From positions 1-38,335 of IMG/VR virus record IMGVR_UViG_3300040807_001774: a DNA stretch of 38,335 nucleotides; one strand, given 5' to 3'. The position numbers and the translations under genes were made by a program. This stretch comes from a virus. Below are positions 11,274 to 30,937 of the stretch, piece by piece. The notes beneath the pieces were generated by a model. That model was not told the origin of the DNA, searched no databases, and saw only the letters and a program-made list of their open reading frames with translations. The first letter of the stretch is position 1, and every line of letters starts with the position of its first letter.

Positions 11274-11330
11274 GCGGTGCTCCACTACTTGATCTATGAA
11301 GTAGTATAGGTTGTTGGAATAGAGGTCAAT
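11274..11330. promoter_or_regulatory. Divergent intergenic region between terminase and head genes
   Basis: This 57-base gap separates the leftward terminase operon from the rightward head operon, so both transcripts probably begin here or nearby. It contains the terminase ribosome-binding site and, on +, an AGAGG site for the small membrane protein. I see AT-rich hexamers (TATAGG) but no convincing -35/-10 pair, so promoter positions are not assigned. Confidence 0.35.
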
Positions 11331-13821: not shown

Positions 13822-15465
13822 ATGCAGATCTCAAATGCATCCGCACATGCCACAGAATTCAAGGCGATCTCTGGACAAATCAATGTAGACGAAGCACAGG
13901 GAATCGTTGAGTGCTTCGTTTCCGGAGTTGGCAACAAGGACAGCGTCGGCGACATTGTCCTTCCTGGCGCTTTTACTGAAAGTTTGAAGCGTCGCAAGCC
14001 TCGCGTGGTGTGGGGACACGACTGGAACCACCCAATTGGGAAAGTTCTTGAGATTTACGAAGTTGGACCAGCCGACAGGCGTTTGCCATCAAAAATGAAG
14101 CAAGCAGGAATTGGCGGTCTCTACGCTCGCGTCCAATTCAACCTCAAGTCCGAAAAGGGGCGAGAGGCTTTCACCAACGTGTCTTTCTACGGAGAAGAGC
14201 AGGAGTGGTCAATCGGCTACAAGACGCTTGAAGCCACGTACGACAACGAGCGCAAAGCGAATTTGTTGCGGGAAGTTGAACTTTATGAAGTTTCCCCAGT
14301 CCTTCACGGAGCGAACCAGCTAACTGGTACCATTTCTATCAAGTCAGATAAAACTGACGATGAAGTATCTTCGTTTGGTAAAAGCAAATGGAAGATGTTT
14401 GATAGGGAATTTGCCGCTCGGATCAAAGAGGACTACCCAGAGATTTGGAAAAAAGGCGGGAACATCAAAGGCAACGCTCAATATGCGATTCTGACAAAAA
14501 TCGCAGAAGAGGGCGGGGTCGCAAAGACTCAAGATCAGATCAACGCTCTCGAATTGCGCGAGGCGTGGGTGGCCCGCCACGAGGGAGACTTTCGCCTTCC
14601 AGGCGTGATCGCTCAGATCAAGTGGTTAGCGATAGGGGGCAGGGGCGAGGACTACATGAAGAACGTAGTCCGGGAAGCGATGAAGAAAGTTGATGAGCGC
14701 AAAAAGAAAGATGCTCTTGACGATCTAGATGAACTTGAAACCGTGATGGCTGAAGAAAAAGGTCATGGCGGGATGGAGTATCACTCGCTGAAAGTAGAGC
14801 TCGCCAAGCGTTTTGGTGGCCCCATCCGTGTTCGTGAAATCCGTGGCGGGAAAGTCACGTTTGATCACATGCATGATGGCGAACCAATGACAATGCGTGT
14901 CGGATTCCGTTACGTTGATGGGGAGTGGATGTTCGGAGAGCCTGAAAAAGTTGTTGTCCGAACGATTTATGTGACTGCCGAAGACGGCGACGACGAAGGC
15001 GGGAACCCGACAGAAGAGGGCGAAACCCCAACTCCTGATACTTACGGAAGTTCTCCCACTGAAAAAGATTGTGGCTGCGGATGTGGGGGCAGTGGCTCAG
15101 GAGACACCATGTCTCGTGTGCGTCAAATGCTTGACCTCATCAAGTCTGACGTGTCCGATGAATTGGAGGAAAAGGTCGGACGTGTCATCAGCGCGGGCAA
15201 TCTTGAGAAACTCCAGACGGCAATGAATCTGTTGCAAGAAGTGATCGCCGCTGGTGGTCGTGCAGAGATTGAAATGAAACTTCGAGCGCCAGCAGAGAAG
15301 TTGTTTGCAATCAAGTCTCACATTGATCCCGTTTTGCAGCATTACTCGGCAATTACTGAGGTTCACGAAGACGGAATCGCTATCAAATCTATTGACGGTG
15401 ACGTGGCGAACTTCAAGAATGCGCTCAAGACAGCAACCGAGTCGTACATCTCCAAGAATAGTTGA
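13822..15465 (+). CDS. HK97-family prohead protease with C-terminal extension domains
   Basis: A 547-aa protein; GAGGAG precedes the ATG. Residues 1-175 form the U35 protease, with catalytic H66 (VVWGHDWNHP) and S130 (EWSIGYKT) and the conserved EVELYEVSPV strand. Residues about 185-300 form a domain common in phage head proteins (DYPEIWKKGGNIKGN, then AWVARHEGDFRLPGVIAQIKW). A further beta-rich segment (about 325-385) is followed by an acidic linker, a C417-G-C-G-C421 motif in a Gly/Ser-rich hinge, and a helical C-terminus of about 118 residues. The protease clears scaffold and trims capsid subunits. The C-terminal helical part could act as the scaffold itself. HK97 proteases alone are about 200 residues, so the extra domains are unusual. 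Confidence 0.88.
   Translation: MQISNASAHATEFKAISGQINVDEAQGIVECFVSGVGNKDSVGDIVLPGAFTESLKRRKPRVVWGHDWNHPIGKVLEIYEVGPADRRLPSKMKQAGIGGLYARVQFNLKSEKGREAFTNVSFYGEEQEWSIGYKTLEATYDNERKANLLREVELYEVSPVLHGANQLTGTISIKSDKTDDEVSSFGKSKWKMFDREFAARIKEDYPEIWKKGGNIKGNAQYAILTKIAEEGGVAKTQDQINALELREAWVARHEGDFRLPGVIAQIKWLAIGGRGEDYMKNVVREAMKKVDERKKKDALDDLDELETVMAEEKGHGGMEYHSLKVELAKRFGGPIRVREIRGGKVTFDHMHDGEPMTMRVGFRYVDGEWMFGEPEKVVVRTIYVTAEDGDDEGGNPTEEGETPTPDTYGSSPTEKDCGCGCGGSGSGDTMSRVRQMLDLIKSDVSDELEEKVGRVISAGNLEKLQTAMNLLQEVIAAGGRAEIEMKLRAPAEKLFAIKSHIDPVLQHYSAITEVHEDGIAIKSIDGDVANFKNALKTATESYISKNS
15099..15111 (+). promoter_or_regulatory. Possible internal ribosome-binding site and start inside protease gene
   Basis: AGGAGA lies four bases before an in-frame ATG (15109), exactly at the hinge between the CGCGC motif and the helical C-terminus. 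Initiation here would give a separate 118-aa helical protein ending with the protease stop at 15465. Lambda uses the same device for scaffold Nu3 inside protease gene C. This is seen as a sequence pattern only. Confidence 0.35.
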
Positions 15466-15572: not shown

Positions 15573-17192
15573 ATGGACAGAGAAAAGTCTTTAGTGAAAA
15601 TCACCAACAAGTACCTTTGCATGGTTTCAGGTCAGAAACGAATGGAACCATGTTCTGGGTGCTCTAATCCCAAAGGCTGCTTGTCACGAGCAATGCAGTA
15701 CAAGGAGACAGAGGAAATGGAAAGCACCGAAGAAAAAGCCGTCGTCAAGATCAGTGCAGATGGCGATGTTATGAAATGTGCCAAAGGCATGGACATCAAA
15801 GAGTGTGGTTACAAGGGCGGCAAAGTATGTGGCGCTTGTGGAGCCATGGCTGTTGAGGCTAAAGACGATTCTCAAGATCTGGCTGAAGATGCGACAGAGG
15901 TCGCCGAGCTAGAGATTTCTGAGAAGGACGCAGAAGAGATCATCGAAGCAAAATCCGAAGATGCTCCTGCTGAAGAAGACGACGCTGATGCCGAAGAGGC
16001 AACCGAGGCTGATGCCGAGGAGAAAAGCGCTGACAGCATTGAAATTGAAATCGTTGACGCTGCTGACGTTGAGGAGAAGGCATTCGGTGCGCCCGCTCCT
16101 GTTCGCGGCGACGAGGACGAGGACGAGGAAGAGGACGAAGCTGAAGAGGCTGCTCCTGACGCAGAGATGGAAGACGAAGACGACGAGGACGGCAAGGGTT
16201 ACGGGATGATGAAGCCCGGCAAGCGTTCACGTCGCATGGCGATGAAGTCACTTGGCGTTGCCGAGGAAGAGGACGTGTTCCTCTGCCAAATGGAACGTAA
16301 GGTTTACTCAGCCAAAGACGACGTCTGCGCCAACTGCCCTGGCGGTTGCGCCCCCGAAGAGGGCATGCCCGGAATCCTTGATATTGAAGGTGTCGCTCTT
16401 GACATGTTCGGCGGCAAAGTTCTTTCTTCTGGCTATGCAGACGAAGCGGATCTGTTCATCGTTGACGTGATGGGCAAGGACGGGCGAGCATTTGAGATCC
16501 TCGCTGACGGTCAGACTGGTGAAGTTGTTAACTTCCATCGCCTGACAACGTCTGATCTTGAGAGCGCCATGGGTCAGAAGTCTCTTGAAGACGCAGAGAG
16601 CGCCTTGGTTGATATCAAGAGCGCCGAGCGTATTGCTTTGGAGATGCTGAAAGACGAACTGGGAATTGAAGGCAAAGTTCTTGAAGCCGACTCCGACCTC
16701 TTTGAGGGGTATGACTCGTACGTCTTTGAGATTGACGGCGAGAACGGCAAGTCGTACGACGCTTTCGTTGGTCTCGGCGGTGAGCGTTTCGGCTACGACG
16801 AGTACGACGCCTCTGAAGTTGTTGATATTGAAGCCGAAGCGGCTGAACTTGCGCTGAAGCGGATGTATTCAGACGACGAGCGTGAGAAACTCGCTGAGAG
16901 CGGCATGGCGATGGAAGACGGTTCGTTCCCAATCAAGGACGTTGAGGACTTGAAGAACGCTATTCAAGCGTATGGTCGAGCCAAGGACAAAGACAAGGCT
17001 AAAGCACACATCATCAAGCGTGCGATGGATCTTGACTCTGCTGACCTCATCCCAGAGAACTGGGTGCCAAAGAAGATCGCTGAAGAGGCTGAGGCTGCCG
17101 AGTCCGACGAGAAGAGCGCAGAAGACGACTTCATGGCAAAGATCATGGAGTTTGAAATGCTTTCCGTTGAGGACGAAATCGGCGAAGTCTGA
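15573..17192 (+). CDS. Acidic Cys-cluster head-region protein with DUF6582-like C-terminus
   Basis: A 539-aa, strongly acidic protein. Three Cys clusters appear in the N-terminal half: CSGCSNPKGC (residues 28-37), a C-x5-7-C set ending in CGACG (about 70-91), and C-x17-C-x2-C-x3-C around residue 240-260. They are separated by Glu/Asp/Ala-rich low-complexity stretches. Two PepSY-like repeats follow (ADLFIVDVMGKDGRAFEI and YDSYVFEIDGENGKSYDAF). The end (DGSFPIKDVEDLKNAIQAYG, then AHIIKRAMDLDSADLIPENW, about 444-497) matches a domain widespread in phage head proteins, recalled as DUF6582. It could be a scaffold or decoration protein. The start is uncertain: GTG 15594 after AGAGAAAAG is an alternative. 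Confidence 0.72.
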   Translation: MDREKSLVKITNKYLCMVSGQKRMEPCSGCSNPKGCLSRAMQYKETEEMESTEEKAVVKISADGDVMKCAKGMDIKECGYKGGKVCGACGAMAVEAKDDSQDLAEDATEVAELEISEKDAEEIIEAKSEDAPAEEDDADAEEATEADAEEKSADSIEIEIVDAADVEEKAFGAPAPVRGDEDEDEEEDEAEEAAPDAEMEDEDDEDGKGYGMMKPGKRSRRMAMKSLGVAEEEDVFLCQMERKVYSAKDDVCANCPGGCAPEEGMPGILDIEGVALDMFGGKVLSSGYADEADLFIVDVMGKDGRAFEILADGQTGEVVNFHRLTTSDLESAMGQKSLEDAESALVDIKSAERIALEMLKDELGIEGKVLEADSDLFEGYDSYVFEIDGENGKSYDAFVGLGGERFGYDEYDASEVVDIEAEAAELALKRMYSDDEREKLAESGMAMEDGSFPIKDVEDLKNAIQAYGRAKDKDKAKAHIIKRAMDLDSADLIPENWVPKKIAEEAEAAESDEKSAEDDFMAKIMEFEMLSVEDEIGEV

Positions 17193-17514: not shown

Positions 17515-18126
17515 ATGGAAGAAAAAGCTCCTACCCCTCCGGCGTTGCAGTCGGTTTTAGATCTGCCCCAAGAGCGGATCTCTGGTGACATTCTTCGTGG
17601 CTATGGACCTCGTCGTGGAAACTTGGAGCGTCTTCTCCGCTACTGGCGTCCGATTATGCGTAAACCTGGCGGTTTCCGTCGCTGTCGCCGAATTCTTGCA
17701 AATCACCCCGAGTTGTACCCGTTGGAGCGGATCTGCGCTTGGCTCCACCACGAAACAACTGGCTTGTGGCCAAATGAGGGATGCCATCATCCTGGCATGA
17801 AGAACTGTCGAGGCAAGCCTCGCAAGGGTCGTCGTGGTTCTTTGTGGACGGACAAAGAGTGGGAGCGTCGTTTGGCTCGCCGTTTCCGTCGGGGCAAAAA
17901 AGGGGCGTTGACCCCTCAAGAGAATTATGTTGTCACTGAAGGTGACTACACCTACGCCATGAAAGTCCTGAGCGAGTTCATGGAGATGGAGAAAGGTTTT
18001 GTTGACTATCTGCGAGATGACAAAAACTGGATCCATATTGGTGAAGACGAAAACGGCAACGAAGTAGAGCATGAATGGATGAAAGCCGACTCTGACGGCT
18101 GTGGCTGCGGGTGCGGCGATGGCTGA
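17515..18126 (+). CDS. Hypothetical head-region protein with CGCGCG tail
   Basis: A 203-aa protein. Residues about 25-95 are basic and rich in aromatic and His residues: GYGPRRGNLERLLRYWRP, then PGGFRRCRRILANHPELYPL and CAWLHHETTGLWPNEG. The latter part of this reads like a conserved actinophage family with several Cys/His that could bind a metal. The end is acidic and finishes SDGCGCGCGDG, the longest version of the Cys-Gly tag. It overlaps the next gene by eight bases. The function is unknown; its position suggests a virion or assembly role. Confidence 0.7.
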   Translation: MEEKAPTPPALQSVLDLPQERISGDILRGYGPRRGNLERLLRYWRPIMRKPGGFRRCRRILANHPELYPLERICAWLHHETTGLWPNEGCHHPGMKNCRGKPRKGRRGSLWTDKEWERRLARRFRRGKKGALTPQENYVVTEGDYTYAMKVLSEFMEMEKGFVDYLRDDKNWIHIGEDENGNEVEHEWMKADSDGCGCGCGDG

Positions 18127-20170
18127 TCGTCTGCCTCGCCCGCTTTCTTTCATTCGTCATTTCGTTCTTGACGACGAGCGGAAGCCAGCAACGGGGTTGT
18201 TTTATTTCCCTTTGCTCGGTTCTAAGGTGTTGGCTGAGCATAAGGGTCGCTTGTACCGCAACCAAAGCGTTAAGCGTGTTGGGGCACTCGGAGGTGGGCG
18301 GGCATCGCAGGCTGCTCAAGCCGCTGGCTCAATGCTTGCTCCAGGGAACGTGAGTCCTGCTCGTTCGCCTATTAGGTCTGGAATTTCTCGAGCTTTGACC
18401 CCTGGTGGTGGTCGTGGACGTGGATCTGTCCCACAGAAACCTGAGCGCGGCTACCGTTGCCCAGAAGGTTTCCAGTTTGGTGGACGTTTCACTGATGAGA
18501 ACTTCACAACTTGCGGTAAGCAGTTGTTTGACATTCCTTCATTACGGGAAACTCTCGCTCAGGCGATTTACCGTACCCGTGGCACTCGTTCCGTTGGATC
18601 TGGTGCTCCCTCTACGTCTACTGACGCTGAGGTTATTGAAGGTGGAGCGGATGACGCTACAGCACAGTTGATGGTTCAACGTGCCGCAAATGTTCCTCGT
18701 GTTGGGAACGAGGATAACAAGGCTCGTTCTGAAGGTATCAAACAGGCTGTTGATGCTGTTGCGAATCAAGATGCCGAATCGGGCGTGTTGGTACGTCGTG
18801 ACGGATTTTTGATGGTTCCTGTGGTTTCTGCTCAGGAACTGCGTGATGTTCCTGATAACAGGAACATGGAAGAAGCGGCGTACGTGATGTCGGCACGCTC
18901 TGCCGAACAACTTGGTGGCGACGAGCTGAAGTTCTTGTCAAACACGGGTGTCACATCTCTGGTGTACGTGACTCCTAACGGGGTGCAGTTGCGTTTGGAT
19001 AAGAAACGTGATCTGTCCACGGGTGAGCGTCGTCAGTTGGGTAAGGACGTGGCTGATGCGAAGAAGCAGGATGTCTCTACAGATCCTACGGCTCGACTGA
19101 AGTTTATTGCTGAGAAAACTGACGGGTCATTTGAATTCAGTCAAGATATCGGTGACGTCAAAGACGGGGATGAAACTATCTCGTCAGGTAAAAACAAGGG
19201 CATGCCTCGTTGGGCTGTTGGTGCGTTTGTAGAGCAGCCGGATGAACGAGTTGAAGATGCTGTTGATGATGATGGAGAGGTCACTGCTGCTGTACCAACT
19301 GCGGATGGTGATGCAGTTGCTCCGGATACTGAGGAGCGGATTGCCACGGTTAAAGGCGCTGTAGAGCATTTGAATAACGGTGGTCTTCTGTCTCAGTTAG
19401 ATCCTTCTGTCGTGTTTGAAGCATTGAAGAGAAGCGACCGGTACAAGGAGCGCGAACTTCGTGAAGACATCACTTTGTTTGAACCTGAAGAAGGCGCAAA
19501 GATTATTGTCAAAACCAACAACACTGATTTTGAACATCTGAGCGCACACTTCTCATCAGAGGTATTGCGGTCGCTTGGTGTGCAGGCTCCAGCAGTCAAG
19601 TTCGCTGGCGAAGGTGACGACAAGCCATTTGCTTACCGTTCTCCTGACGGGGTGATTGAAGGCACGTTTATTGACAGAAACTTGAGCCCTGGTGATCTTC
19701 CTCCTGAGCGAATTATTGGCGTTCAGATTGCGGACTGGCTGTCCGACACCCGTGACCGTTCTCCTGCCTCAATCATCGGCGTTCGCCAAGAGGAAAATGA
19801 GGATGAGTTTGATCTCGTTGCAGGTATTGGTCCTGCTTCTGCCCTGATTGGGTTGAGTGCTGAAGAGTTGGAAGAGCGTCGATCTTTGGATATCCCGGCT
19901 TTCTTTGAGTCAACGAAAACCTCTTACGGTCAAGATTTCTCTGAGGCGACAGATCAGCAACGTGACATTCTGATCCAGGTTCTCAATGCTCTTATTGATA
20001 GAGCACGTGAATTTGATTGGACGGAGTACCGCGAGAAATTAGCTGTTGACGGTAAACTAAGTGAAGGCGAAGAGCAACACTTGGAGATTGTTGAAACTCT
20101 TTTCAATGATCGTCTGAATAAGTTAGAGAACTCTCGTGAAGCACTGCTAGCGATCTTGGGTATTCAGTGA
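18119..20170 (+). CDS. Virion-region protein with degenerate kinase-like domain (putative pseudokinase)
   Basis: A 683-aa protein from ATG 18119; an upstream GTG (18101) would add six residues and is less likely. A motif RCPEGFQFGGRFTD with C114 and C132 matches the next protein without gaps. The C-terminal part from about residue 415 (EHLNNGGLLSQ) aligns with the kinase-like domain of the 2418-aa neighbour: K465 in IIVKT matches its lysine and the following Glu-containing helix is also present. The catalytic loop reads D546-RSPAS, with Asn replaced by Ser, and the DHG motif is lost (AGIGPAS near 568). It is therefore probably inactive and may regulate or scaffold its active paralogue. Overlaps both neighbours, so all three are co-translated. 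Confidence 0.75.
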   Translation: MADRLPRPLSFIRHFVLDDERKPATGLFYFPLLGSKVLAEHKGRLYRNQSVKRVGALGGGRASQAAQAAGSMLAPGNVSPARSPIRSGISRALTPGGGRGRGSVPQKPERGYRCPEGFQFGGRFTDENFTTCGKQLFDIPSLRETLAQAIYRTRGTRSVGSGAPSTSTDAEVIEGGADDATAQLMVQRAANVPRVGNEDNKARSEGIKQAVDAVANQDAESGVLVRRDGFLMVPVVSAQELRDVPDNRNMEEAAYVMSARSAEQLGGDELKFLSNTGVTSLVYVTPNGVQLRLDKKRDLSTGERRQLGKDVADAKKQDVSTDPTARLKFIAEKTDGSFEFSQDIGDVKDGDETISSGKNKGMPRWAVGAFVEQPDERVEDAVDDDGEVTAAVPTADGDAVAPDTEERIATVKGAVEHLNNGGLLSQLDPSVVFEALKRSDRYKERELREDITLFEPEEGAKIIVKTNNTDFEHLSAHFSSEVLRSLGVQAPAVKFAGEGDDKPFAYRSPDGVIEGTFIDRNLSPGDLPPERIIGVQIADWLSDTRDRSPASIIGVRQEENEDEFDLVAGIGPASALIGLSAEELEERRSLDIPAFFESTKTSYGQDFSEATDQQRDILIQVLNALIDRAREFDWTEYREKLAVDGKLSEGEEQHLEIVETLFNDRLNKLENSREALLAILGIQ

Positions 20171-23100
20171 TGAAACAAATCAGTTTTGTTAAAGATGTTG
20201 AGACTGGGGATCTGTACGGTTTCATTATCCGTGACGGAGATCGCGCTACCGCTATCGGCGCTACGCCACACGCTAAAACTTGGGCTAGTTGGGCAAATCA
20301 CTCAAAGATGTTGTCTGACCAGATGACCAAGTCACTTGATGTGACGTTGCAAAAGTCTGAGTCCTTTGACTTGAACACTAAGCGTCTTGAGGTTCTCAAG
20401 TCTCGTCTCCCACGTAACTTGTTTGATCAGATTGTTGATAACGCTGATGATGAGGCAATGATTATTCGTGGGACTCGTCACAAGACGATGGGTGCCAGGT
20501 TTATCAGTAAGTCTGTGAGCCAGCATAAACATCCTTACCAAGGTGTTGCTTCACGACCATTGAGTTCGTTCTCCCTCGCTGACCGTAAGGCTGCGATGGA
20601 ATACAAAGCAGTATTTGCTGAGACTCAACAGAAGTATTCAACGCTGAATATTCAGGTAAAGAAAAACCGGGCTGTTTTTGACCCGAACATTGGTCCAGGT
20701 GGTGGATGGCGTTGTCCTGACGGATCACTTTACGGCGGTCGCATCACTGACCGTTTTGGTCGTGGATGTGGTGGGGGTCTAACTCGCCGTATCGGTCGCG
20801 CAATCATGAATGCTGGTCGTCGTCTTGACGATCTTGGCGAAACGATGGATCAGCGTCGTGCTGTTCGTCGAGCGGCTCGGGTTGAGCGTCAAGCAGATCG
20901 ACGTGAGCGTGCAGCGAAAAAGATCCAGCGTGTCAGCGACTCTCTTGAGTCTTTGGCTCAGGCACTGGTTGGTGATTATCAGCCGTTGGAAGGTATTACT
21001 CCTAGACGTAAGCGTCGTCGTGGCGCTGGTGTTGTTGATGGGGATCTTCCAGATACAGACGTGCCTCGTGCGCGCCGTCGGAAGTTAGTTCCTTCTAAGC
21101 CAAAGCGGACAGTTGTTGCTGATGATTTGAAGAAGAAGCCTTCAGGTCGAAAAAAGCGTGGCGCTGAGGCTAAGCCGACAGAGTTGACTCCTCGGGTTCG
21201 TAAGTTGACTGAAAGTCTTGCTCAACGTCTCGTTGGCGACTACGAACCACTTGAAGGAATTGAAGGTCGTCCGCGACGGTCTCGTCGGTCTGACGGTGAT
21301 CAGAGAACGGTAATTCAGCGGATTCAAGATGCTATTGAGCGTTTCGTTTCTCGGTTGATCGGCGACTATGAGCCGTTGGAGGGAATCTCTCCTCGTCGTG
21401 ATCGTCGTCGCCGTGAGGTTGCGAAGAAAGTTCCGACTCCCGCTAAGAAGCCTTCTGGTAAGAAGACCCCGGCGAAGAAGACCCCAGCGAAGAAGCCTCG
21501 CGCCCAGAAGCCAAAGAAAAAGGATCGCGTCGCTGAGATCAATGACGAACTGAAAAAACTTAGCCAAGAGCGGATGTCAATTGAATCTAAGGAAGGCGCT
21601 TTCACCCAGAAAGAGAATGCGCGACTAAAAGAGATTGAGAAGGAACGCTCAGCTCTGCTCGTTGAGAGAGCGAAACTTGAGTCCGCCGATCCGATGCCTC
21701 AGGATATTCCAAGTCCTGATAAGCCTAAGAAGGTTAAGCCTGCTGCACCTTCAAAAGCAAAAGCCGGTAAGCAGTACGGTGGTGCCTTCAAGAACGGCGA
21801 CAACGCTAAGGCTAAAGCCGTTGAGCGTTCCATGGAGACTGGCCAGTCGCTTGTTGTGGTTCGTGGCGATGACGACAAGTTCCGAATCGTGGACGCTGAC
21901 CGTTTGAATGACGACGACTCCTTGATGGCGATGTTTGCTGTTACTCCTGAGGGTGGCTTTGTTGAATGGGACAACGACCTGTCGTTCGACGACAACATGA
22001 AGGTTGTCAAGGCTGCAATTGATCTTGAAGAAAAAGACATCATTGAGGAACTGAAACCTGTTCCGGTTGAAGATCTTGACCTTGAGTTGAAGAAGTCAAA
22101 GACAGGTTCTTTCTTGCCTGATGCTTTGAACTCAATCATGTTGGAAAACCATCGGAAGGGTGCTGACGCCGATTTCCGTAAGGCGTTCCACGAGCAACGG
22201 TTGAAGAACTGGTCGTTCTGGAAAAATCAAGTCGGTGACGACAAGTTTGAAGATGTCACTGACGCTAAGGGAGCGTTGGCTCTCATTGACGCTCACTACG
22301 AGAAGGTTTCAAAAACTGAGCCTATTGACGAGGCGCTGCTTGGCATGTTGCGTGCTGAGCGTAAAAACTTTTTGGCTATGTGGGTTCCTGATGATGGAAT
22401 GGACGAAGTCAATTTCTATGAGCGCTTTAACTATGTGAATCCGAAGCGGCGTCAGGCGATTATTCAGCAAGCAAATGTTGGCGAAATGCTGGTTGGCAAG
22501 AAGAAGAAGGCTGATAAGCCGAAGACGCCGAATGTTGATGCGCCTATCAATCCGGATAAATCTGTTGTCCCTGAGGCTGATGCGCCTGAAGCACCAAAAC
22601 CTCCGGATGCGCCTAAGCAACTTTCAGTGCCAGGTAAAGACGTGGAGCCTGACAAGGTTTTGAACCTTGGTGAAAACCCTGGCAAGTATGTCATGTCGTA
22701 TAAGCAGGGGTTGCGTTCAACTATTGAGAACTTGCCTGAAGATAAGAAGAATAAAAATGACATTCTCTATAAGAGCAATGACGAAATTGATGCAGCAGCG
22801 AAACTGAATGCTCAAGCTCCTGAGTTGCACGTTTTGAATTTGGAGTCTGAACAGGAGAATTTGTCTGAACTTCGTGGGGAGTTGTCAAAGAAGATAACGA
22901 ATGGTGAGACGGTCACTGAAAACGATGTCATCAAGTTGATCCGAGCAGAGAATAAAGTTCGCTACTACCAGACAGCGGTGGATCAAGATAACGAAGTATA
23001 TGAGGCGAGCGTTAAGGCACAAGAAGCCCAAGTGGCTGCTTTGCAAGCCAAGATTGATGCAGACAAGACCAACGTTCAACTCACTCAGCAGAAAAATTTC

Positions 23101-26100
23101 ACAGAGGCTGCTCAACTAGGTGCTTCTTTTGAGTTAGACAACGAGAAACTTCTGTCAAATGTTGACGACGTTGACGAATTGAAGGCTGACCCAGACGCAT
23201 ACATTGCTGCACTTGATGACGACTTGAGTTCAAAGAAATTTGAAGTCAACGCAGGATTGGCTGAGATGCACGTGAAGGTGTCTGAGGGAACTGCTACGGA
23301 GGACGACATTCAGTCGGCTCTCGCTAAGCATGCTGAAGTCCAGAAGTTGGCTGAGGTCGTGGAAGCCCTGAAGAAGAAGTCGGCGGCTGGCACGTTGTTC
23401 CCGTCAGACAGTGATGACGGCGACAGCGCAGAGTTCAACCCGTTCCGTGCAGACTTTGACACCTATGAAGGTGACACCACTCCTTTTGACACGTTTGCGG
23501 ATCGTTCTGCGTATCAGAAGAAACTTGACCAACTATTTGTTGATGCAAAGATTAAAGATGCGAACGCTCACTCGGCGGGTGAAAAAGACGGAAGCATCGT
23601 TGCGAGGTTCGGTAAAGAAGATGGAACTGTTGACGAGAAAGCAATTCTTGACAAGTTAGGCGAGCTCGGCAAGGCGTATGACGGGATAAATGCGGCGAAC
23701 CTGCAAAAGATGGGTTCTGGAGAGTTAAGCCCTAACGATCTTGAGTTGAAGTATCTGGCTATGGCCGAGATTGAGAAAACTAAACATGCTCTCACTCGGT
23801 CTTACGCAATTAACGCTGAGTTGAAGAAGAAAAACGAAGATGACAGCCTGACAACTCCAGATTTGATGCCGGATGCTGATCTTCCAGATGATCTAACCGA
23901 CGGTCTCCCTGAAGTTGACAACATGGAGTCTGCGATCAAGGACTCGATTGATAACTTCACTCCGACCAAAGCAACTATTGCCTCCGCTAAATCAAAACTG
24001 ATTTCAGACGCAGAGTTCAACGACCTCAAGACGGAAGATGACGTCAACGCTTACTACGATTACTTAGAAGCACGAATTGCTGGCTTGTCGGCACCGTTTG
24101 AAATTGTTGCTGTTGCTGATGAGCCGAACTATGAGGCGCTGAACGCTCATTTCGGAAGTGAAGAAGAGTTCAACCATGCTCTCGCTGTTCACAAGCACAA
24201 AAAGGCGTTGGAGAAGTGGGTCAAAGTATCTCGTATCAGCGCCATAGAGTCGCTTGCTGACTCTGAGAACACTGATGCGCCTGACAAGCCGAAGACGATA
24301 AATCCTGATTCACCAGGTGACGCGGCTGGCCACATTCTCTCTCACTTGAAGGCTTCTGCTCCTGACTTCAAATATGACACGCAGAAAGAAAAGCAAGAAG
24401 CCAAGGGCAAGACAATGCAGGGTCAGATCTCAAACGCTGACTATGGCACCGACTTGCTTGACTCCCTTCCGGTTGACTTCTACGATCTTTCCGCTCAGGA
24501 ACAGATTGACGTCCTCCAAAACCTGACTGGTAAAAACAACCCGAACTCTGCATTGGGTGAGATTTACAAGACCTACATTCTCCGTGCCAACGGAGACAAG
24601 GAAAGTCTTCAGATACTCCAAACAGGCATTGACAACCCAAGCGATCAAAACCTTGTAACTCAGATCCTGCAAGCAACTGGAACAAACTCGTTGCAGGACG
24701 CTATTGATGTCGCCGCATCCGATCTTGACGCAGCAACTGACAAACTTGGTGCTGCTAACGACGAGATCTTGAAGTTGCGCGCTATGCGTGATGTAAGCAC
24801 TGCTCGTAACAAGTACATCGCTGCGCTGTCTGCTCGAATGTCAGATCCTTCACTTCCTGACAGCGAGAAGAAACTTGTCTATCAAGAACTTAAGAAGTAC
24901 GCCGACTTTGTCCCAGAGGACAAGCGCTTAGCCTTCAAGCAGGGAATGCTGAACATCAAAGATGTGCAGTCAAAACCATCCGACAAAAACACCGGCTCTG
25001 GAATGCTTTCCACTCCAGATTTTGATCCTGTTCTTCTCGGTTCAACATCTGACACTGGTGACGCTGTCGCACAAACAATCCCAGTTGGCAACGCCGGACT
25101 CTTTGACGTTGAAGACGCTGCAACGCATGTTTCCACGGGTGGCGCTTTGTCTCAAGTCCCAGACGATTTCTTGAAGGACTCAATTGTTGCCAACCTCGGC
25201 GAGAACAAGAGGTTCCAGCCATTTGCGATCACTCAAGGATTCAACCCCGACAACTTCGCTGTTGTTGATTCAGTGACAGGCAAGAAGTACATCATCAAAA
25301 CCGAAGATCGCAACCACATGGGTCACATCCAAGAAGCTCTTGGGGCGCACTTGGCGAACGAACTCGGGTTCCCAACTGCTGGTATCCGATTTGGTTCAGC
25401 AGTAAAAGACACGAACCTCCCTGGTCCACAGCAATCTGCGGAAGGTGTCACCCAGGGTCGCGGTCGAACAATGGTCATTGAACACCTTGAGAACCAGTTC
25501 CCCAATAATGAGGTCAAGTCTCTCCATCAGATCCCTGCGGATGCGCAGTTGACCGGAGAATCAATTGCTCGGATGATGGTTCTTGACAGGACAATGAACT
25601 ACTTTGATCGCACGCCCGGCAACATGTTTGTAGTTAAAGGGTCTGACGGTAAGTGGAATCTGCATCCGATTGACCACGGTAATGCTTTCCGTGACTGGGG
25701 TGGTTCAGGTGCAGAACAAGGCGCTGGCTTCACGAAGGTCACGAAGGGCGACAACGTTGACCTCATGGGTCTTGTTGCCAAGTTGTCTCCTGAAGAGAAA
25801 GAGAAATGGGCAAACGCTCTCAACAAGGCGTCACGGAAGGTTGCAAAGTTGGACATGGATTCCGCTTTGAAAGCCAAGTTGACGTCCGGGAACGTCGTCG
25901 GTAACGAGGATGTGCAGCGCCTAGACAAGCACATCGCGTACTTGAAGACGAAACAGTCAAACCTTGACTGGGATGCCATGACCACATCTGCTTTGGCGAA
26001 GGCTGGCTACAGCCAAGAAGAGATTTCTGACATTCTCACTGGTGGACCAGCAGTCAAGAAATTTGCAGTGAATCAGGGTGATAGCCCTGCTGCTACAGCG

Positions 26101-27426
26101 GTTGAGAAAATGAAAGCCAAGTCTGGTACACGTAACTTTGGGCACGTCATGTTGTGGGACGGCGAAGATATTGAAGGTTTCGCTGTTCGAGCCCAAGACA
26201 TCAAGACCACTGGGATGCCTGATGCGGATGGAAATGTTGGTGGTTCTGGCAAGATCGCAACGATGCTCAACTTGAAACTCCGTGGTGACGCTCACGCCAA
26301 GATGCAGTCAGAACTTGAAAATCCTGAAGCAAATGGCTGGACGTACTTGGTTCAGGGCAAAGCAACTGCTCGGTACTCAACCCAACTTGGAGCCAAGGCA
26401 GGCGAATCCAAGAGTTTCAACTTCAACAACCCGAAGACCTCCCCTGGTGATGAAGATGTAATGACGTATCGGAAAGTGATGCCTGATGGCACTGTCATTT
26501 TGGCGACAAAAACGTCTAATACTAAATCTTCGTACCATGCGACGTATTCGGTCATTTTGCCCGGAAAGTCGGATGACGTACTCAATGATGCAAACGTGAC
26601 GTCGGCTCTTTCAAACTTGGGTGTCAAGAACCATGGCAATCCAACACCGGAGGATGTTCGCAATTATGGCGTTATGACTGCCGGTCGCGCAGTGTTGGGT
26701 GCATCAAATCTGACTGGCAATGAGGACATTGACGACATGCTTGATGCCTTGACTAAAGCCGGTATTGACCCAGAGGGTATCTCAATGCGACCGACAACTA
26801 CTGGCGAGTTGAAAGTTATGTTTTCTCCGGAGGATGCAAAGAAACTGAAAGAGAAGTACAAACTTGGTCCGTTGTATCACGATGTGATGTACAAGTCTGA
26901 CTCATCAGTTGACGAAAAATTCTTGTCAATTTTGGCAACTGGGTCTTTGGGTTCAACAACGACTCGCTTCAACGGAGGCATTGGCAAAGCGGGTGGCTCA
27001 TCAGCGGCAGACGCTAAGAACAAAGGTAGCGCTGACTATGTGTTTTTGGGTACTACCTCTGAGACTTCTGCTGGTTCGTACAGTAATGGAAAGGTTTATA
27101 CGCCACCAGAGTTGATGATGGCGTATGCCGACATGTACACCCAGCAAAATGATGCTTGGGGCGAGTTGAATGCTCGATGGGGTCACGATAAAGCGTTCCA
27201 AGCCACTGCTGGCGGTAACCAGATGATGGTTCGGGATAGCGTCCCAGCGTCGTCGTCAATCTATGTCACAAGTACTGCTAGTTCTGTGATTCAAAATTTG
27301 CAGGCGATTGGTATTACCGAAATTGACGGCGTCCCAGTTTCTGACATAGTTGTCACTCCGGCGGAAGCGGATGCAGCTTACCAGAAGTTGCTTAGTCGTT
27401 TGAAAGCAGAAGGGATCATCGCATGA
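20170..27426 (+). CDS. Giant multidomain protein: kinase-like domain and possible ART-like C-terminus
   Basis: A 2418-aa protein; ATG 20170 overlaps the upstream stop by one base, and GTG 20167 is a less likely start. Order: beta-rich N-terminus; C-x17-C motif (C182, C200); basic region with three LxGDYxPLEGI repeats (266, 354, 396) and a Lys/Pro/Ala tract (TPAKKTPAKK); long helical, coiled-coil and acidic middle (about 470-1640); kinase-like domain (about 1650-1900) with K1710, D1813-RTPGN1818 and D1835-HG, the pattern of PI3/4-kinase and HipA-like folds; then a beta-rich region; then a C-terminal domain (about 2230-2418) opening LYHDV (H2237) and containing GGSSAADAKNKGSADYVF, which resembles ADP-ribosyltransferase-like folds. 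It lies between protease and capsid genes, which suits an ejected virion effector. A tape measure is unlikely: no hydrophobic segments are seen. Confidence 0.8.
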   Translation: MKQISFVKDVETGDLYGFIIRDGDRATAIGATPHAKTWASWANHSKMLSDQMTKSLDVTLQKSESFDLNTKRLEVLKSRLPRNLFDQIVDNADDEAMIIRGTRHKTMGARFISKSVSQHKHPYQGVASRPLSSFSLADRKAAMEYKAVFAETQQKYSTLNIQVKKNRAVFDPNIGPGGGWRCPDGSLYGGRITDRFGRGCGGGLTRRIGRAIMNAGRRLDDLGETMDQRRAVRRAARVERQADRRERAAKKIQRVSDSLESLAQALVGDYQPLEGITPRRKRRRGAGVVDGDLPDTDVPRARRRKLVPSKPKRTVVADDLKKKPSGRKKRGAEAKPTELTPRVRKLTESLAQRLVGDYEPLEGIEGRPRRSRRSDGDQRTVIQRIQDAIERFVSRLIGDYEPLEGISPRRDRRRREVAKKVPTPAKKPSGKKTPAKKTPAKKPRAQKPKKKDRVAEINDELKKLSQERMSIESKEGAFTQKENARLKEIEKERSALLVERAKLESADPMPQDIPSPDKPKKVKPAAPSKAKAGKQYGGAFKNGDNAKAKAVERSMETGQSLVVVRGDDDKFRIVDADRLNDDDSLMAMFAVTPEGGFVEWDNDLSFDDNMKVVKAAIDLEEKDIIEELKPVPVEDLDLELKKSKTGSFLPDALNSIMLENHRKGADADFRKAFHEQRLKNWSFWKNQVGDDKFEDVTDAKGALALIDAHYEKVSKTEPIDEALLGMLRAERKNFLAMWVPDDGMDEVNFYERFNYVNPKRRQAIIQQANVGEMLVGKKKKADKPKTPNVDAPINPDKSVVPEADAPEAPKPPDAPKQLSVPGKDVEPDKVLNLGENPGKYVMSYKQGLRSTIENLPEDKKNKNDILYKSNDEIDAAAKLNAQAPELHVLNLESEQENLSELRGELSKKITNGETVTENDVIKLIRAENKVRYYQTAVDQDNEVYEASVKAQEAQVAALQAKIDADKTNVQLTQQKNFTEAAQLGASFELDNEKLLSNVDDVDELKADPDAYIAALDDDLSSKKFEVNAGLAEMHVKVSEGTATEDDIQSALAKHAEVQKLAEVVEALKKKSAAGTLFPSDSDDGDSAEFNPFRADFDTYEGDTTPFDTFADRSAYQKKLDQLFVDAKIKDANAHSAGEKDGSIVARFGKEDGTVDEKAILDKLGELGKAYDGINAANLQKMGSGELSPNDLELKYLAMAEIEKTKHALTRSYAINAELKKKNEDDSLTTPDLMPDADLPDDLTDGLPEVDNMESAIKDSIDNFTPTKATIASAKSKLISDAEFNDLKTEDDVNAYYDYLEARIAGLSAPFEIVAVADEPNYEALNAHFGSEEEFNHALAVHKHKKALEKWVKVSRISAIESLADSENTDAPDKPKTINPDSPGDAAGHILSHLKASAPDFKYDTQKEKQEAKGKTMQGQISNADYGTDLLDSLPVDFYDLSAQEQIDVLQNLTGKNNPNSALGEIYKTYILRANGDKESLQILQTGIDNPSDQNLVTQILQATGTNSLQDAIDVAASDLDAATDKLGAANDEILKLRAMRDVSTARNKYIAALSARMSDPSLPDSEKKLVYQELKKYADFVPEDKRLAFKQGMLNIKDVQSKPSDKNTGSGMLSTPDFDPVLLGSTSDTGDAVAQTIPVGNAGLFDVEDAATHVSTGGALSQVPDDFLKDSIVANLGENKRFQPFAITQGFNPDNFAVVDSVTGKKYIIKTEDRNHMGHIQEALGAHLANELGFPTAGIRFGSAVKDTNLPGPQQSAEGVTQGRGRTMVIEHLENQFPNNEVKSLHQIPADAQLTGESIARMMVLDRTMNYFDRTPGNMFVVKGSDGKWNLHPIDHGNAFRDWGGSGAEQGAGFTKVTKGDNVDLMGLVAKLSPEEKEKWANALNKASRKVAKLDMDSALKAKLTSGNVVGNEDVQRLDKHIAYLKTKQSNLDWDAMTTSALAKAGYSQEEISDILTGGPAVKKFAVNQGDSPAATAVEKMKAKSGTRNFGHVMLWDGEDIEGFAVRAQDIKTTGMPDADGNVGGSGKIATMLNLKLRGDAHAKMQSELENPEANGWTYLVQGKATARYSTQLGAKAGESKSFNFNNPKTSPGDEDVMTYRKVMPDGTVILATKTSNTKSSYHATYSVILPGKSDDVLNDANVTSALSNLGVKNHGNPTPEDVRNYGVMTAGRAVLGASNLTGNEDIDDMLDALTKAGIDPEGISMRPTTTGELKVMFSPEDAKKLKEKYKLGPLYHDVMYKSDSSVDEKFLSILATGSLGSTTTRFNGGIGKAGGSSAADAKNKGSADYVFLGTTSETSAGSYSNGKVYTPPELMMAYADMYTQQNDAWGELNARWGHDKAFQATAGGNQMMVRDSVPASSSIYVTSTASSVIQNLQAIGITEIDGVPVSDIVVTPAEADAAYQKLLSRLKAEGIIA
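20965..21387 (+). repeat. Three LxGDYxPLEGI coding repeats in the giant protein
   Basis: The 11-residue unit L(V/I)GDY(Q/E)PLEGI occurs at 20965-20997, 21229-21261 and 21355-21387 (residues 266, 354 and 396). Each is preceded by a helix like SLAQRL and followed by an Arg-rich stretch such as PRRDRRRR. Codons differ between copies, so the protein sequence rather than the DNA is what is kept. They could be docking or cleavage motifs. Confidence 0.8.
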
Positions 27427-27868: not shown

Positions 27869-28216
27869 GTGAAGAAAGCTCTTCTGTATTTTGACCTCGT
27901 CAAGAACGGTGAACAAATTCCGCAAACAGTTTTCATTTATAATGACGGTGAAGTCAAAATCGTCGGCAATGAACTAACGATGGGTGGTTCAATGCAGGCA
28001 ACTTCACTCAGGAACACTTTCGCGGCTTTGACTGCTAAAGAGTCCGAAGATGCTGCTCGCATGATTTTTGACGAGTACACACCAGCCGCTCCTGGCTACA
28101 CCGCACAATCCTTTGTCGTTGACTATGAAGGCGAAGGCAAAGAAATGGCGGACGACATGTTTAACAAGTTGTCCTCACGCAACTTTGATAACGCGAAGAG
28201 GAAAAAAGATGGCTAA
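27869..28216 (+). CDS. Hypothetical protein
   Basis: A 115-aa protein with a GTG start; GGAAGAG lies upstream and five bases separate it from the previous stop. A beta-hairpin-like N-terminus (ALLYFDLVKNGE, then VFIYNDGEVKIVG) is followed by helices and a basic end (NAKRKKDG). It overlaps the next gene by eight bases. No family is recognised; the context is the putative virion-effector block. Confidence 0.65.
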   Translation: MKKALLYFDLVKNGEQIPQTVFIYNDGEVKIVGNELTMGGSMQATSLRNTFAALTAKESEDAARMIFDEYTPAAPGYTAQSFVVDYEGEGKEMADDMFNKLSSRNFDNAKRKKDG

Positions 28217-29341: not shown

Positions 29342-29458
29342 ATGCAAATGTCAATCGTTTATCATGTAAATCAAGACAGCAAGTGGCTGGGTGCTTACCT
29401 GAGCCTAGATGTCCTAAACAACATCCAGAAAACCCAACCACAACTCTACGAGGAGTAG
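29342..29458 (+). CDS. Possible 38-aa leader peptide before capsid gene
   Basis: A short frame (MQMSIVYHVNQDSKWLGAYL...) in the 145-base gap between the previous gene and the capsid gene. Its stop lies five bases before the capsid ATG and its last codons contain the capsid gene's GAGGAG site, so translation of the leader could couple to capsid synthesis. It lacks a ribosome-binding site of its own. A 7-base hairpin (29327-29343) covers its ATG. It may be chance. Confidence 0.33.
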   Translation: MQMSIVYHVNQDSKWLGAYLSLDVLNNIQKTQPQLYEE

Positions 29459-29463
29459 GAACA

Positions 29464-30825
29464 ATGTCAGTAGACGAATCACGTCTCAGCGAACTTCAAG
29501 GCGCACTCCGCCAGAAGATGGCTGACAACAAGGAAATCGCCGATTCTTTCAAGATGGAAGACGGCGTCATGCAGGTAACTGCTGAGCAGAAGTCGGCGTT
29601 CGACAAGAACATGACCGACATCAAGGAAATCAAGAGCCTCATTGAGGGCATTGAGGGAATGCGCGAAGTTGAGCGTTGGAGCGAAGCTCCTGCCGCCGAC
29701 TCGGTTGCCATGAAGGCTGACGCCCAGGCGTTCGCCACCGAGGTTGCCGACGCCGTCCGCAAGGGTGCAAGCGCCAAGTCTCTCGGCGAGCTCTTCATTG
29801 CCTCGGAGGAGTTCAAGAGCCTCAATCAGGGTCGTAACGGTGCGAACATGCCGTCGCCTTGGCAGCTCAAGACCTCTGACTTCACCGGTTACAACGTCAA
29901 GGACGTCTACTCGGCGCTCCCCAGCGGTACCCCTGGTTCATTCGGCGCTATCCAGCGCGATCCGATTGTGGACCAGCCGACCCGGACCCGTCGCGTTCGC
30001 GACCTGTTCCCGGCTCGCACCACCACCGCTGCGGTCATCGAGTACTTCCGCATGATCGGGTTCACCACCCCCGGCACTTCTGCGGTCAACGCTGCTTCGT
30101 CGGTTGCTGAGCGTAACGGCTCGGACTTCCACTTGAAGCCGCAGTCCTCGATGCAGTTCATCGGCGAGCAGGCTCCTGTCCGCACGTTGGCTCACTGGGA
30201 AGCCGCACACCGCAACGTTCTCGCTGACGAGCCGCAACTCCGCTCGATCATCGACAACGAGCTCATGTACGGTCTCCGTCTTGAAGAGGACGATCAGCTC
30301 CTCAACGGTGACGGAACTGGTGAGAACCTCACCGGTATCCTCCAGACCAGCGACATCCAGACCTACAACTGGTCTGACGGCAACTACGACGCTTCAAACG
30401 CAGCCCTCACCGATAAGAAGGTTGATGCGATCCGTCGTGCCGCTACCCTCTCGTTCCTTTCGTACTACGAGCCAACCGGCGTCGTGATGCACCCGAACGA
30501 CTGGGAAGAGATTGAGTTGTCGAAGGACGCCAACGGTCAGTACCTCGTTGCTGTCTCCGTCGCCATGGGTGGCGAGCCTCGCATCTGGCGGATCCCCGTC
30601 ATTGAGACTCCTGCTATCGCCGAGGGCACCGCTCTCGTCGGAGCGTTCGGAACCGGCGCACAGTTGTATGACCGTGAGCAGGCCAGCATCCGTATCAGCG
30701 AGCAGCACTCGGACTTCTTCGTTCGCAACGCGATCGTCGTCCTTGCTGAGCAGCGCCTCGCCCTCGCGGTGAAGCGTCCGGAGGCATTCGTCAAGGTTTC
30801 GTTTGACGCAGCCCCCACCAGCTGA
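29464..30825 (+). CDS. HK97-fold major capsid protein
   Basis: A 453-aa capsid protein of the Phage_capsid family. Residues 1-120 form a charged helical delta-like domain, the part normally removed by the prohead protease. The body has typical strands and loops: RVRDLFPARTTT, then FIGEQAPVRTLAHWEAAHRN, then LLNGDGTGENLTGIL, VVMHPNDWEEIEL and IWRIPVIETPAI. The ATG at 29464 follows AGGAGTAGGAA; in-frame codons upstream are not part of the gene. Its DNA is visibly more G+C-rich and uses preferred codons, as expected for the most highly expressed gene. A terminator follows it directly. Confidence 0.95.
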   Translation: MSVDESRLSELQGALRQKMADNKEIADSFKMEDGVMQVTAEQKSAFDKNMTDIKEIKSLIEGIEGMREVERWSEAPAADSVAMKADAQAFATEVADAVRKGASAKSLGELFIASEEFKSLNQGRNGANMPSPWQLKTSDFTGYNVKDVYSALPSGTPGSFGAIQRDPIVDQPTRTRRVRDLFPARTTTAAVIEYFRMIGFTTPGTSAVNAASSVAERNGSDFHLKPQSSMQFIGEQAPVRTLAHWEAAHRNVLADEPQLRSIIDNELMYGLRLEEDDQLLNGDGTGENLTGILQTSDIQTYNWSDGNYDASNAALTDKKVDAIRRAATLSFLSYYEPTGVVMHPNDWEEIELSKDANGQYLVAVSVAMGGEPRIWRIPVIETPAIAEGTALVGAFGTGAQLYDREQASIRISEQHSDFFVRNAIVVLAEQRLALAVKRPEAFVKVSFDAAPTS

Positions 30826-30885: not shown

Positions 30886-30937
30886 ATGGACATAGCACTA
30901 TTTGACTCCCTGCTATTATTTATGTGGAGGTGGGCTT

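What the first reader, a model, noticed from the sequence alone, without database searches (positions are those of the whole stretch)
18119..27426. Adjacent pseudokinase and kinase paralogues in a phage head operon
Seen: both proteins contain a region opening H(L/V)xxxGGxLSQ, then a strand with a lysine (IIVKT and YIIKT), then a Glu-containing helix (SAHFSSEVLRSLGV and QEALGAHLANELGF). The large protein keeps DRTPGN and IDHG, the catalytic and metal-binding motifs of PI3/4-kinase and HipA-like folds. The small one has DRSPAS and AGIGPAS instead. Known: kinase/pseudokinase pairs often act as enzyme plus allosteric regulator. Inferred: a phage-encoded pair that may be packaged and delivered to the host.
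Basis: partly seen in the sequence, partly recalled or inferred. Interest (0 to 1): 0.87.

Follow-up and report, generated by a model that had tools for sequence, protein, structure and literature searches.

The report
Phage head kinase beside ancient pseudokinase
In a family of uncultured phages, the genes that build the virus head include a giant protein with an intact-looking kinase domain and, just before it, a conserved protein that ends in a long-degenerate copy of the same kinase fold; the degenerate copy is kept even where no kinase was found, so it is probably a structural or docking part rather than the kinase's private regulator.

Summary
P0001 (18101-20170) ends in a domain modelled with the HipA/CotH/CtkA/PI4K kinase fold (pLDDT 89); P0002 (20167-27426) has a related domain at aa 1634-1930 (pLDDT 85). 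Profile comparison joins them (E 1e-14). P0002 keeps the five catalytic residues, P0001 two. Among relatives the split is clean: 36 of 36 distinct domains in other operon proteins keep 4-5, 40 of 40 fused to the P0001 module keep 0-2; one branch (100/100) separates them. The pseudokinase is old and looks selected.

A dedicated enzyme/regulator pair is not supported as a rule: of 34 distinct pseudokinase proteins with a classifiable next gene, 11 precede a kinase and 23 a giant protein ending in another module (X); 29 of 44 records searched show no intact kinase (records may be fragments). In the window the genes lie between head protease and capsid gene. A Cys motif is shared with kinase-type giant proteins but lost or altered in the X type. 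I read these as head-associated proteins, the kinase as a probable injected effector, the pseudokinase as a structural or docking part. Packaging, activity and docking are untested.

The parts
18101..20170 (+). P0001, 689 aa: N-terminal module (aa ~1-381) plus C-terminal pseudokinase domain
   Evidence: alternative ATG start at 18119
18455..18532 (+). P0001 Cys motif, aa 119-144 (RCPEGFQFGGRFTDENFTTCGKQLFD)
19319..20167 (+). P0001 pseudokinase domain (aa 407-689, 283 aa modelled)
   Evidence: alignment A3; AlphaFold2 pLDDT 89.4; PDB matches
19754..19771 (+). P0001 catalytic-loop equivalent DRSPAS (D552 kept, Asn position is S557)
20167..27426 (+). P0002, 2419 aa giant protein: conserved N-terminus, long middle region, kinase domain, C-terminal module
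20710..20787 (+). P0002 Cys motif, aa 182-207 (RCPDGSLYGGRITDRFGRGCGGGLTR)
25066..25956 (+). P0002 kinase domain (aa 1634-1930), HipA/CotH/PI4K-like
   Evidence: PF00454 2.5e-5 and HipA_2 1e-4, both under their cut-offs; AlphaFold2 pLDDT 85.1
25606..25623 (+). P0002 catalytic loop DRTPGN (D1814, N1819)
25669..25680 (+). P0002 metal-binding motif IDHG (D1836)
26467..27423 (+). P0002 C-terminal module of unassigned function (27% identical to L005; its end matches phrog_3145, E 8.5e-4)
9969..11285 (-). terminase large subunit (named by eye, not family-tested), flanking marker
   Evidence: homologues in 7 of 21 mapped loci
11513..13729 (+). portal protein fused to MuF domain
13822..15465 (+). prohead protease (S78)
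15573..17192 (+). 539-aa acidic protein, conserved neighbour (homologue in 18 of 21 mapped loci)
17515..18126 (+). 203-aa protein immediately upstream of P0001
28068..29318 (+). 416-aa protein (DUF3721 + DUF5824) between P0002 and the capsid gene (homologue in 18 of 21 mapped loci)
29383..30825 (+). major capsid protein (HK97 type)

Best explanation
P0001 and P0002 are head-operon proteins of a family of uncultured phages. SHOWN (by sequence and model): P0001 ends in a HipA/CotH/PI4K-fold domain that has lost most of the catalytic set in every relative examined; P0002 carries a domain of the same family with the set complete; the two groups are separated by one well-supported branch; the degenerate domain is conserved, with signs of purifying selection, whether or not an intact kinase is found in the record. 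INFERRED: the kinase-type giant proteins are packaged in the head and ejected with the DNA; the P0002 kinase phosphorylates a host protein or other host molecule early in infection, as head-borne enzymes such as T4 Alt modify host targets; the P0001 pseudokinase is a structural or docking part of the head or of its cargo, working with whatever giant protein follows it rather than regulating one kinase.
For: Fold: pseudokinase CotH Z 14.1, CtkA 13.9, PI4KII 13.0, HipA 12.9; kinase CotH 13.5, PI4KII 12.9, CtkA 11.8, HipA 11.2. Homology. Catalytic positions K, E, D, N, D kept in kinases 36, 34, 36, 36, 36 of 36 and in pseudokinases 10, 3, 15, 9, 2 of 40. One branch, 100/100, separates the 40 from the 36. 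dN/dS 0.024-0.092 in five pseudokinase pairs, 0.077-0.160 in six kinase pairs. Gene order. Cys motif in 58 of 60 distinct P0001-type proteins and in 21 of 22 kinase-type next proteins, in up to four proteins of one operon. Retention without kinase. A cultured actinophage with a related capsid protein has an annotated VIP2-like ART toxin in the same region.
Against: No evidence of packaging or ejection was obtained; position and motif are indirect. The Cys motif is absent in its strict form from all 23 module-X giant proteins and in a loose form from 13 of them, so it is not a general cargo tag and the docking idea lacks a common feature. In module-X phages the capsid gene is mostly far downstream (about 6 to 28 kb in the records checked, and the ranges), and the protease was not reached in those loci. 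Foldseek TM-scores to PDB are modest (about 0.3-0.5), and ordinary protein kinases are also among the hits of the P0002 model. Tail-sheath model PF04984 was found in 1 of 20 records. Four of the five pseudokinase pairs have dS above 1. Records may be fragments. Near-invariant D545, D549, R553 and E478 could mean a ligand site rather than a scaffold.
Confidence: 0.42

Rival explanations
1. Dedicated kinase/pseudokinase pair: the P0001 domain is the allosteric regulator of the P0002 kinase.
For: Adjacent, overlapping genes and homologous domains. A virus precedent: vaccinia B12 pseudokinase and B1 kinase (PMC6395007, abstract and outline seen). 11 of 34 classifiable pseudokinase proteins precede a kinase.
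Against: 23 of 34 precede a giant protein with another module and 29 of 44 records show no intact kinase; 11 of 11 classifiable N-only relatives have kinases without a pseudokinase; the pseudokinase is not a recent sister of the neighbouring kinase. A regulator that later took another role in the X lineage is not excluded.
Confidence: 0.17
2. Morphogenesis: the kinase acts in the producing cell on head proteins, and the whole block is scaffold or assembly machinery, not an injected effector.
For: Position between protease and capsid gene in the window, and shared neighbours in the 21 mapped loci.
Against: In module-X phages no kinase was found although several of the same neighbours are present; the number of intact kinases in a locus varies from none to three, which suits cargo better than an essential assembly step.
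Confidence: 0.2
3. The P0001 domain is not dead but binds a ligand or does different chemistry with a relocated site (E478, D545, D549, R553).
For: Conservation of E478 35/40, G493 40/40, D545 40/40, D549 37/40, R553 39/40 beside the lost positions. The pseudokinase SelO is known to AMPylate (recalled); the pseudokinase profile hits SelO chains only at E about 0.5.
Against: The metal-binding Asp is kept in 2 of 40 and the Lys in 10 of 40; G493 and R553 are as common in the intact kinases and D545 is frequent there, so part of the conservation is structural.
Confidence: 0.15

Closest known systems
HipA / CtkA / CotH / PI4K-type atypical kinases
   Same: Fold of both domains; DRxxxN and IDxG motifs, Lys and alpha-C Glu in P0002
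   Different: Embedded in giant phage head-operon proteins; the window's domain is below the Pfam cut-offs; the P0001 branch is catalytically degenerate
Polyvalent proteins of phages (Iyer et al. 2017, PMC5512222; passages and section 10 seen)
   Same: Large multidomain phage proteins encoded with head genes and predicted to be injected, some with kinase domains; also zeta-toxin-like kinases fused to MuF (passage)
   Different: The protein kinases described there are a reduced Ser/Thr/Tyr-kinase group mainly in Verrucomicrobia-Chlamydia and Bacteroidetes (pro)phages; here a HipA/PI4K type plus a conserved pseudokinase
MuF polymorphic toxins (Jamet et al. 2017, PMC5576092; passages seen; authors recalled)
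   Same: Head-associated conserved N-terminus with variable C-terminal domains
   Different: MuF is on the portal here; the giant proteins have another N-terminal module; only one K/X change is needed on the tree; the word kinase does not occur in that paper's main text
Head-packaged ARTs of the T4 Alt / VIP2 type (PMC9503650; passages seen)
   Same: Enzymes encoded in the head-gene region and thought to be injected; an annotated VIP2-like ART lies between portal and capsid genes in Gordonia phage ChisanaKitsune
   Different: Kinase in the window; no kinase, pseudokinase or Cys motif found in the 31-37 kb pieces of three cultured phages examined, plus-strand frames
Vaccinia B1 kinase / B12 pseudokinase (PMC6395007; abstract and outline seen)
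   Same: Virus-encoded paralogous kinase and pseudokinase
   Different: Here the pseudokinase persists in records where no paralogous kinase was found

Membership tests
HipA/PI3-4K-type kinase superfamily (P0002 domain) | Predicted kinase fold of this type | tested here: met
   pLDDT 85.1; CtkA E 5.5e-7 (TM-score 0.32-0.35); CotH Z 13.5 (rmsd 4.2, 232 aligned), PI4KII 12.9, HipA 11.2
HipA/PI3-4K-type kinase superfamily (P0002 domain) | Catalytic Lys, Glu, Asp, Asn, metal Asp | tested here: met
   K1711, E1723, D1814, N1819, D1836 present; 34 of 36 distinct domains keep five, 2 keep four
HipA/PI3-4K-type kinase superfamily (P0002 domain) | Score over a curated family cut-off | tested here: not met
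   PF00454 24.7 against 27.1 bits; HipA_2 22.1 against 27 bits; no PF07804 match in the window record
HipA/PI3-4K-type kinase superfamily (P0002 domain) | Phosphotransfer activity | not testable with these tools
   needs biochemistry
Pseudokinase (P0001 domain) | Kinase fold | tested here: met
   pLDDT 89.4; (CotH Z 14.1, rmsd 3.3, 231 aligned)
Pseudokinase (P0001 domain) | Loss of catalytic residues across the family | tested here: met
   0-2 of 5 kept in 40 of 40 distinct domains
Pseudokinase (P0001 domain) | No phosphotransfer activity | not testable with these tools
   needs biochemistry; some pseudokinases have other activities (recalled)
HipBA toxin-antitoxin system | Adjacent HipB-like antitoxin | tested here: inconclusive
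   Neither P0001 nor the downstream 146-aa ORF shows an HTH family in Pfam at E<=1; no dedicated HipB search was run
MuF polymorphic toxin | MuF domain N-terminal to the effector domain in one protein | tested here: not met
   MuF is on the portal protein; P0002 has no MuF match in Pfam or PHROGs
Polyvalent protein / head-packaged effector | Encoded among head genes of a portal-terminase phage | tested here: met
   (window)
Polyvalent protein / head-packaged effector | Present in virions and delivered into the cell | not testable with these tools
   needs virion proteomics

The most novel reading that the evidence does not exclude
An old, catalytically degenerate kinase domain was built into a conserved head-operon protein and now serves as a dock, or self-protection cap, for the giant protein encoded next to it, whatever that ends in: a live kinase in some phages, an unrelated module (X) in others. 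This would be a pseudokinase used as virion hardware rather than as a signalling regulator.
Probability: 0.18. Interest if true: 0.82.

Novelty: new variant of a known kind. Interest (0 to 1): 0.62.

Why it matters
In the papers seen, head-borne phage effectors are discussed mainly as ADP-ribosyltransferases and other enzymes. Here HipA/PI4K-type kinases, up to three per locus, take that place in uncultured phages, and a catalytically degenerate paralogue has become a conserved part of a head-operon protein. The clean split (0-2 against 4-5 catalytic residues, 40 against 36 domains) makes the question testable: what does a phage do with a pseudokinase that is kept where no kinase is found? The Cys motif shared by the P0001-type and the kinase-type giant proteins gives a handle for finding further members.

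Tried and rejected
Recent local duplication: rejected; the pseudokinase group is split from the kinases by one 100/100 branch (the program warns of long branches, one join of them among the pseudokinases). Chance resemblance: rejected. A first shuffle control went against me: among 96 of 100 shuffles that gave a result the best reached score 123.9, probability 99.6%, E 8.8e-23, above the real pair. I reran the same shuffles both ways: with the extra -glob flag the outlier returns, an alignment of one column, the only one of 100 with a score of 50 or more; without the flag, the mode used for, 99 shuffles reach at most 18.9. Single-seed search from the window's kinase reached only L003 and L005 besides itself; with six kinase seeds the first round already held 11 P0001-type domains at E<1e-3, best 2e-6, and iteration brought in the rest. 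P0001's HMM hit kinases of L088-L091 weakly, 16-18 bits.

Host and prophage search: 11 and 21 pattern hits in genome contigs, none encoding a relative. Cultured phages: no tblastn match for P0001 and P0002 at 1e-3 or for an L088 kinase and an L078 N-module at 1e-2 in 50,697 records; an L075 kinase hits 4 Vibrio phage records (best E 2e-4) and an L083 kinase hits Gordonia phage Upyo at E 0.3. By structure, BFVD holds close matches in uncultured Caudovirales, the second annotated as PI3-/4-kinase, and weaker ones in Gordonia phages GodonK and Sixama and in haloarchaeal tailed viruses, so kinases of this fold in phages are not new in themselves. PADLOC: 0 families for 3 of 4 domains; the L088 kinase has two weak hits (5.8e-4, 8.4e-3).

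Cys motif as a general cargo tag: weakened on recount. Strict pattern in 10 of 11 and 11 of 11 kinase-type next proteins but 0 of 23 module-X ones; loose pattern in 10 of 23 of these. Module X looks ADP-ribosyltransferase-like to my eye only (recalled motifs); Pfam and PHROGs scans of C-termini gave nothing convincing and a profile search of PDB sequences one hit at E 0.51, so I leave it unnamed. The L062 C-terminus looks kinase-like by eye but matched nothing. I first thought of frequent cargo swapping; the N-module tree needs one K/X change and one gain or loss of the pseudokinase (44 rows, 22 of the 23 X rows), so I do not claim it, and the direction is open because the tree is unrooted. 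dN/dS: pairs with undefined dS (L053/L056, L074/L075; kinases L078/L074, L003/L005) and the near-identical L065/L068 pair (dN 0) were dropped; the near-identical L008/L040 kinase pair is counted. From the 80 distinct domain rows, four short ones (the split kinases of L081 and L082) were dropped before the counts. Literature: listings only, 15 of 1,755, 20 of 181, 20 of 62, 4 of 4, 8 of 8, 1 of 1 and 1 of 1 papers; none listed is about this family, but most hits of the broad searches were not shown and most subscription papers are not held. After the recount I lowered the best explanation from 0.45 to 0.42 and the novel case from 0.22 to 0.18, and raised the regulator rival from 0.15 to 0.17.
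Full report
WHAT IS THERE. The window is a 38,335-base virus record. Its head region reads portal-MuF (11513-13729), prohead protease (13822-15465), a 539-aa protein, small genes, P0001 (18101-20170), P0002 (20167-27426), small genes, a DUF3721/DUF5824 protein (28068-29318) and an HK97-type major capsid protein (29383-30825). Two longer records (137 and 72 kb) hold identical P0001 and P0002. Two details are corrected: the spacing of the GG motif, and the helix Glu of P0001, which is out of register (A482 stands at the kinase position).

FOLD. AlphaFold2 with an alignment of 18 relatives gives the P0001 C-terminal domain pLDDT 89.4 and pTM 0.88. Foldseek's best PDB matches are CtkA (2.5e-4), CotH and HipA, with TM-scores of 0.4-0.5 by query length; the second aligner gives CotH Z 14.1 (rmsd 3.3, 231 residues), CtkA 13.9, PI4KII-beta 13.0, HipA 12.9. 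The P0002 domain, with 29 sequences in the alignment, gives pLDDT 85.1 and pTM 0.85, CtkA 5.5e-7 with low TM-scores and some ordinary protein kinases in the list, and CotH Z 13.5, PI4KII-alpha 12.9, CtkA 11.8, HipA 11.2. Residues 211-228 of that model are below pLDDT 50. By sequence the kinase profile finds CtkA (3.3e-4) and PI4K/PI3K chains; 15 of 29 kinase members match PF00454 and 6 of 29 HipA_2 at E<=0.01, and the window's own domain stays below both cut-offs. 18 of 29 match PHROG 3162, of unknown function, at E<=0.001.

HOMOLOGY OF THE TWO DOMAINS. Profile against profile gives probability 98.3% and E 1.1e-14. Column shuffles in the same mode reach at most 18.9 against 105.6 (99 shuffles with a result); with gappy columns trimmed, 150 shuffles reach at most 24.4 against 107.9 and the reversed profile 17.0. 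An earlier control run with a global-alignment flag gave a shuffled profile above the real pair; one search shows that it was an alignment of one column that appears only with that flag. A search seeded with six kinases finds 11 P0001-type domains in its first round at E<1e-3 and the rest by iteration; seeded with the window's kinase alone it does not.

KINASE OR PSEUDOKINASE. Of 80 distinct domain rows in the loci held, four short ones (kinases split over two ORFs) were dropped. Of the 76 left, the five catalytic positions (Lys, Glu, Asp, Asn, metal Asp) are kept in 36, 34, 36, 36 and 36 of 36 domains outside the P0001-type protein, and in 10, 3, 15, 9 and 2 of 40 domains fused to it. No pseudokinase keeps more than two; every kinase keeps four or five. 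A maximum-likelihood tree puts the two sets on the two sides of one branch, support 100/100, in all of 200 bootstrap trees. The window's P0001 keeps the Lys and the catalytic Asp but not the Glu, Asn or metal Asp. Five pseudokinase pairs with a usable dS have dN/dS 0.024 to 0.092, six kinase pairs 0.077 to 0.160. Four of the five pseudokinase dS values exceed 1, so these are indications, not exact rates.

SURROUNDINGS. In 21 loci mapped, the same kinds of genes were found in the same order as far as each locus reaches: protease in 13 of 21, portal-MuF in 11, the 539-aa type in 18, the 416-aa type in 18, the capsid gene in 8. The phage capsid model is found in 22 of 23 records searched. In the kinase-type relatives the block is compact; in most module-X phages checked the capsid gene lies about 15 to 28 kb downstream of the P0001-type gene, in L070 about 6 kb (with the contig ranges), and the protease was not reached. 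A Cys motif (RCPxGxxxGGxxTDxxxxxCG) is shared by P0001 and P0002. It is found in strict form in 58 of 60 distinct P0001-type proteins and in 21 of 22 kinase-type next proteins, but in 0 of 23 module-X ones (10 of 23 with a loose pattern); up to four proteins of one operon carry it (L088). In N-only relatives such as L088 the P0001-type protein lacks the pseudokinase and up to three intact kinases lie in the neighbouring proteins.

IS IT A PAIR? Of 43 distinct P0001-type proteins with a pseudokinase (two cut at an end), the next giant protein carries a kinase in 11, a different C-terminal module (X) in 23, both in 0, and cannot be classified in 9. Of 44 records that I chose among those behind the loci and searched whole with the kinase profile, 15 have an intact kinase; in the other 29, all of them pseudokinase phages and several of them near-copies, only a weak match in a frame of P0001-type length or nothing was found. 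None of 22 of these has a PF00454 match at E<=0.1, while the three records with kinases put in as controls did. Virus records may be fragments. 11 of 11 classifiable N-only relatives have kinases. So neither partner seems to need the other, which speaks against a dedicated regulator, though not against one in the window's own lineage. On a tree of the N-terminal module the K/X difference needs one change and the pseudokinase one gain or loss, so these are few old events.

MECHANISM. Gene position suggests proteins that go into, or build, the head. Cultured actinophages whose capsid proteins are the nearest found (Gordonia and Brevibacterium, 45-48% identity) have large uncharacterised proteins and, in ChisanaKitsune, an annotated VIP2-like ADP-ribosyltransferase toxin between portal and capsid genes, but no kinase, pseudokinase or Cys motif by my profiles in the pieces examined. 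Published work argues that many enzymes in this place are packaged and injected (PMC5512222 and PMC9503650, passages seen). By analogy I take the P0002 kinase as a probable injected effector and the P0001 pseudokinase as a structural or docking part. The first is inference from place and fold; the second is inference from retention without the kinase, and the missing motif in module-X proteins weakens it. The conserved D545, D549, R553 and E478 of the pseudokinase leave room for a ligand or another chemistry.

WHAT IS NEW. Kinases of this fold in phages are already in databases: BFVD's best match is an uncharacterised 955-aa protein and the second is annotated as PI3-/4-kinase, both from uncultured Caudovirales. 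The protein kinases in polyvalent proteins described in 2017 are of another, reduced type. None of the papers listed in my searches is about a phage head-operon pseudokinase, but only the top of the broad listings was shown. The part that looks new is the family-wide, old pseudokinase fused to a conserved head-operon protein and its persistence where no kinase was found. I rate it a new variant of a known kind (head-operon effectors). The host is unknown; an actinobacterium is a guess from the capsid relatives and an LPxTG-like protein in the window.

Noticed in passing
P0001 18455-18532 and P0002 20710-20787; L088 9245-20041: A Cys motif (RCPxGxxxGGxxTDxxxxxCG) is shared by P0001-type and kinase-type giant proteins, up to four per operon, but is lost or altered in module-X giant proteins.
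   Followed up: partly
L014 11844-17390, L027 11824-18510, L070 11812-15657 and others: Giant proteins of pseudokinase-only phages end in a common module X with invariant RG, GxG, GxD and NR residues; ART-like by eye only, no database match.
   Followed up: partly
L081 5872-8199 and 8196-8957; L082 5432-7759 and 7756-8517: A kinase domain split between two overlapping ORFs (N-terminal part in one, catalytic part in the next), in two related records.
   Followed up: no
L062 16480-17289: C-terminus with a kinase-looking stretch (NWDAPLNDN...RLDVGGSL) after module X; no Pfam or PDB sequence match.
   Followed up: partly
window 34541-35986: 481-aa Thr-rich protein ending in LPVTG, a hydrophobic stretch and basic residues, like a sortase signal (read by eye).
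   Followed up: no
window 30902-32956: 684-aa protein with long Thr-rich repeats downstream of the capsid gene (read by eye).
   Followed up: no
window 28068-29318: Conserved neighbour with DUF3721 and DUF5824, with homologues in 18 of 21 mapped loci.
   Followed up: partly
window 26467-27423: P0002 tail module shared with L005 (27% identity), its end matching phrog_3145; function unknown.
   Followed up: partly
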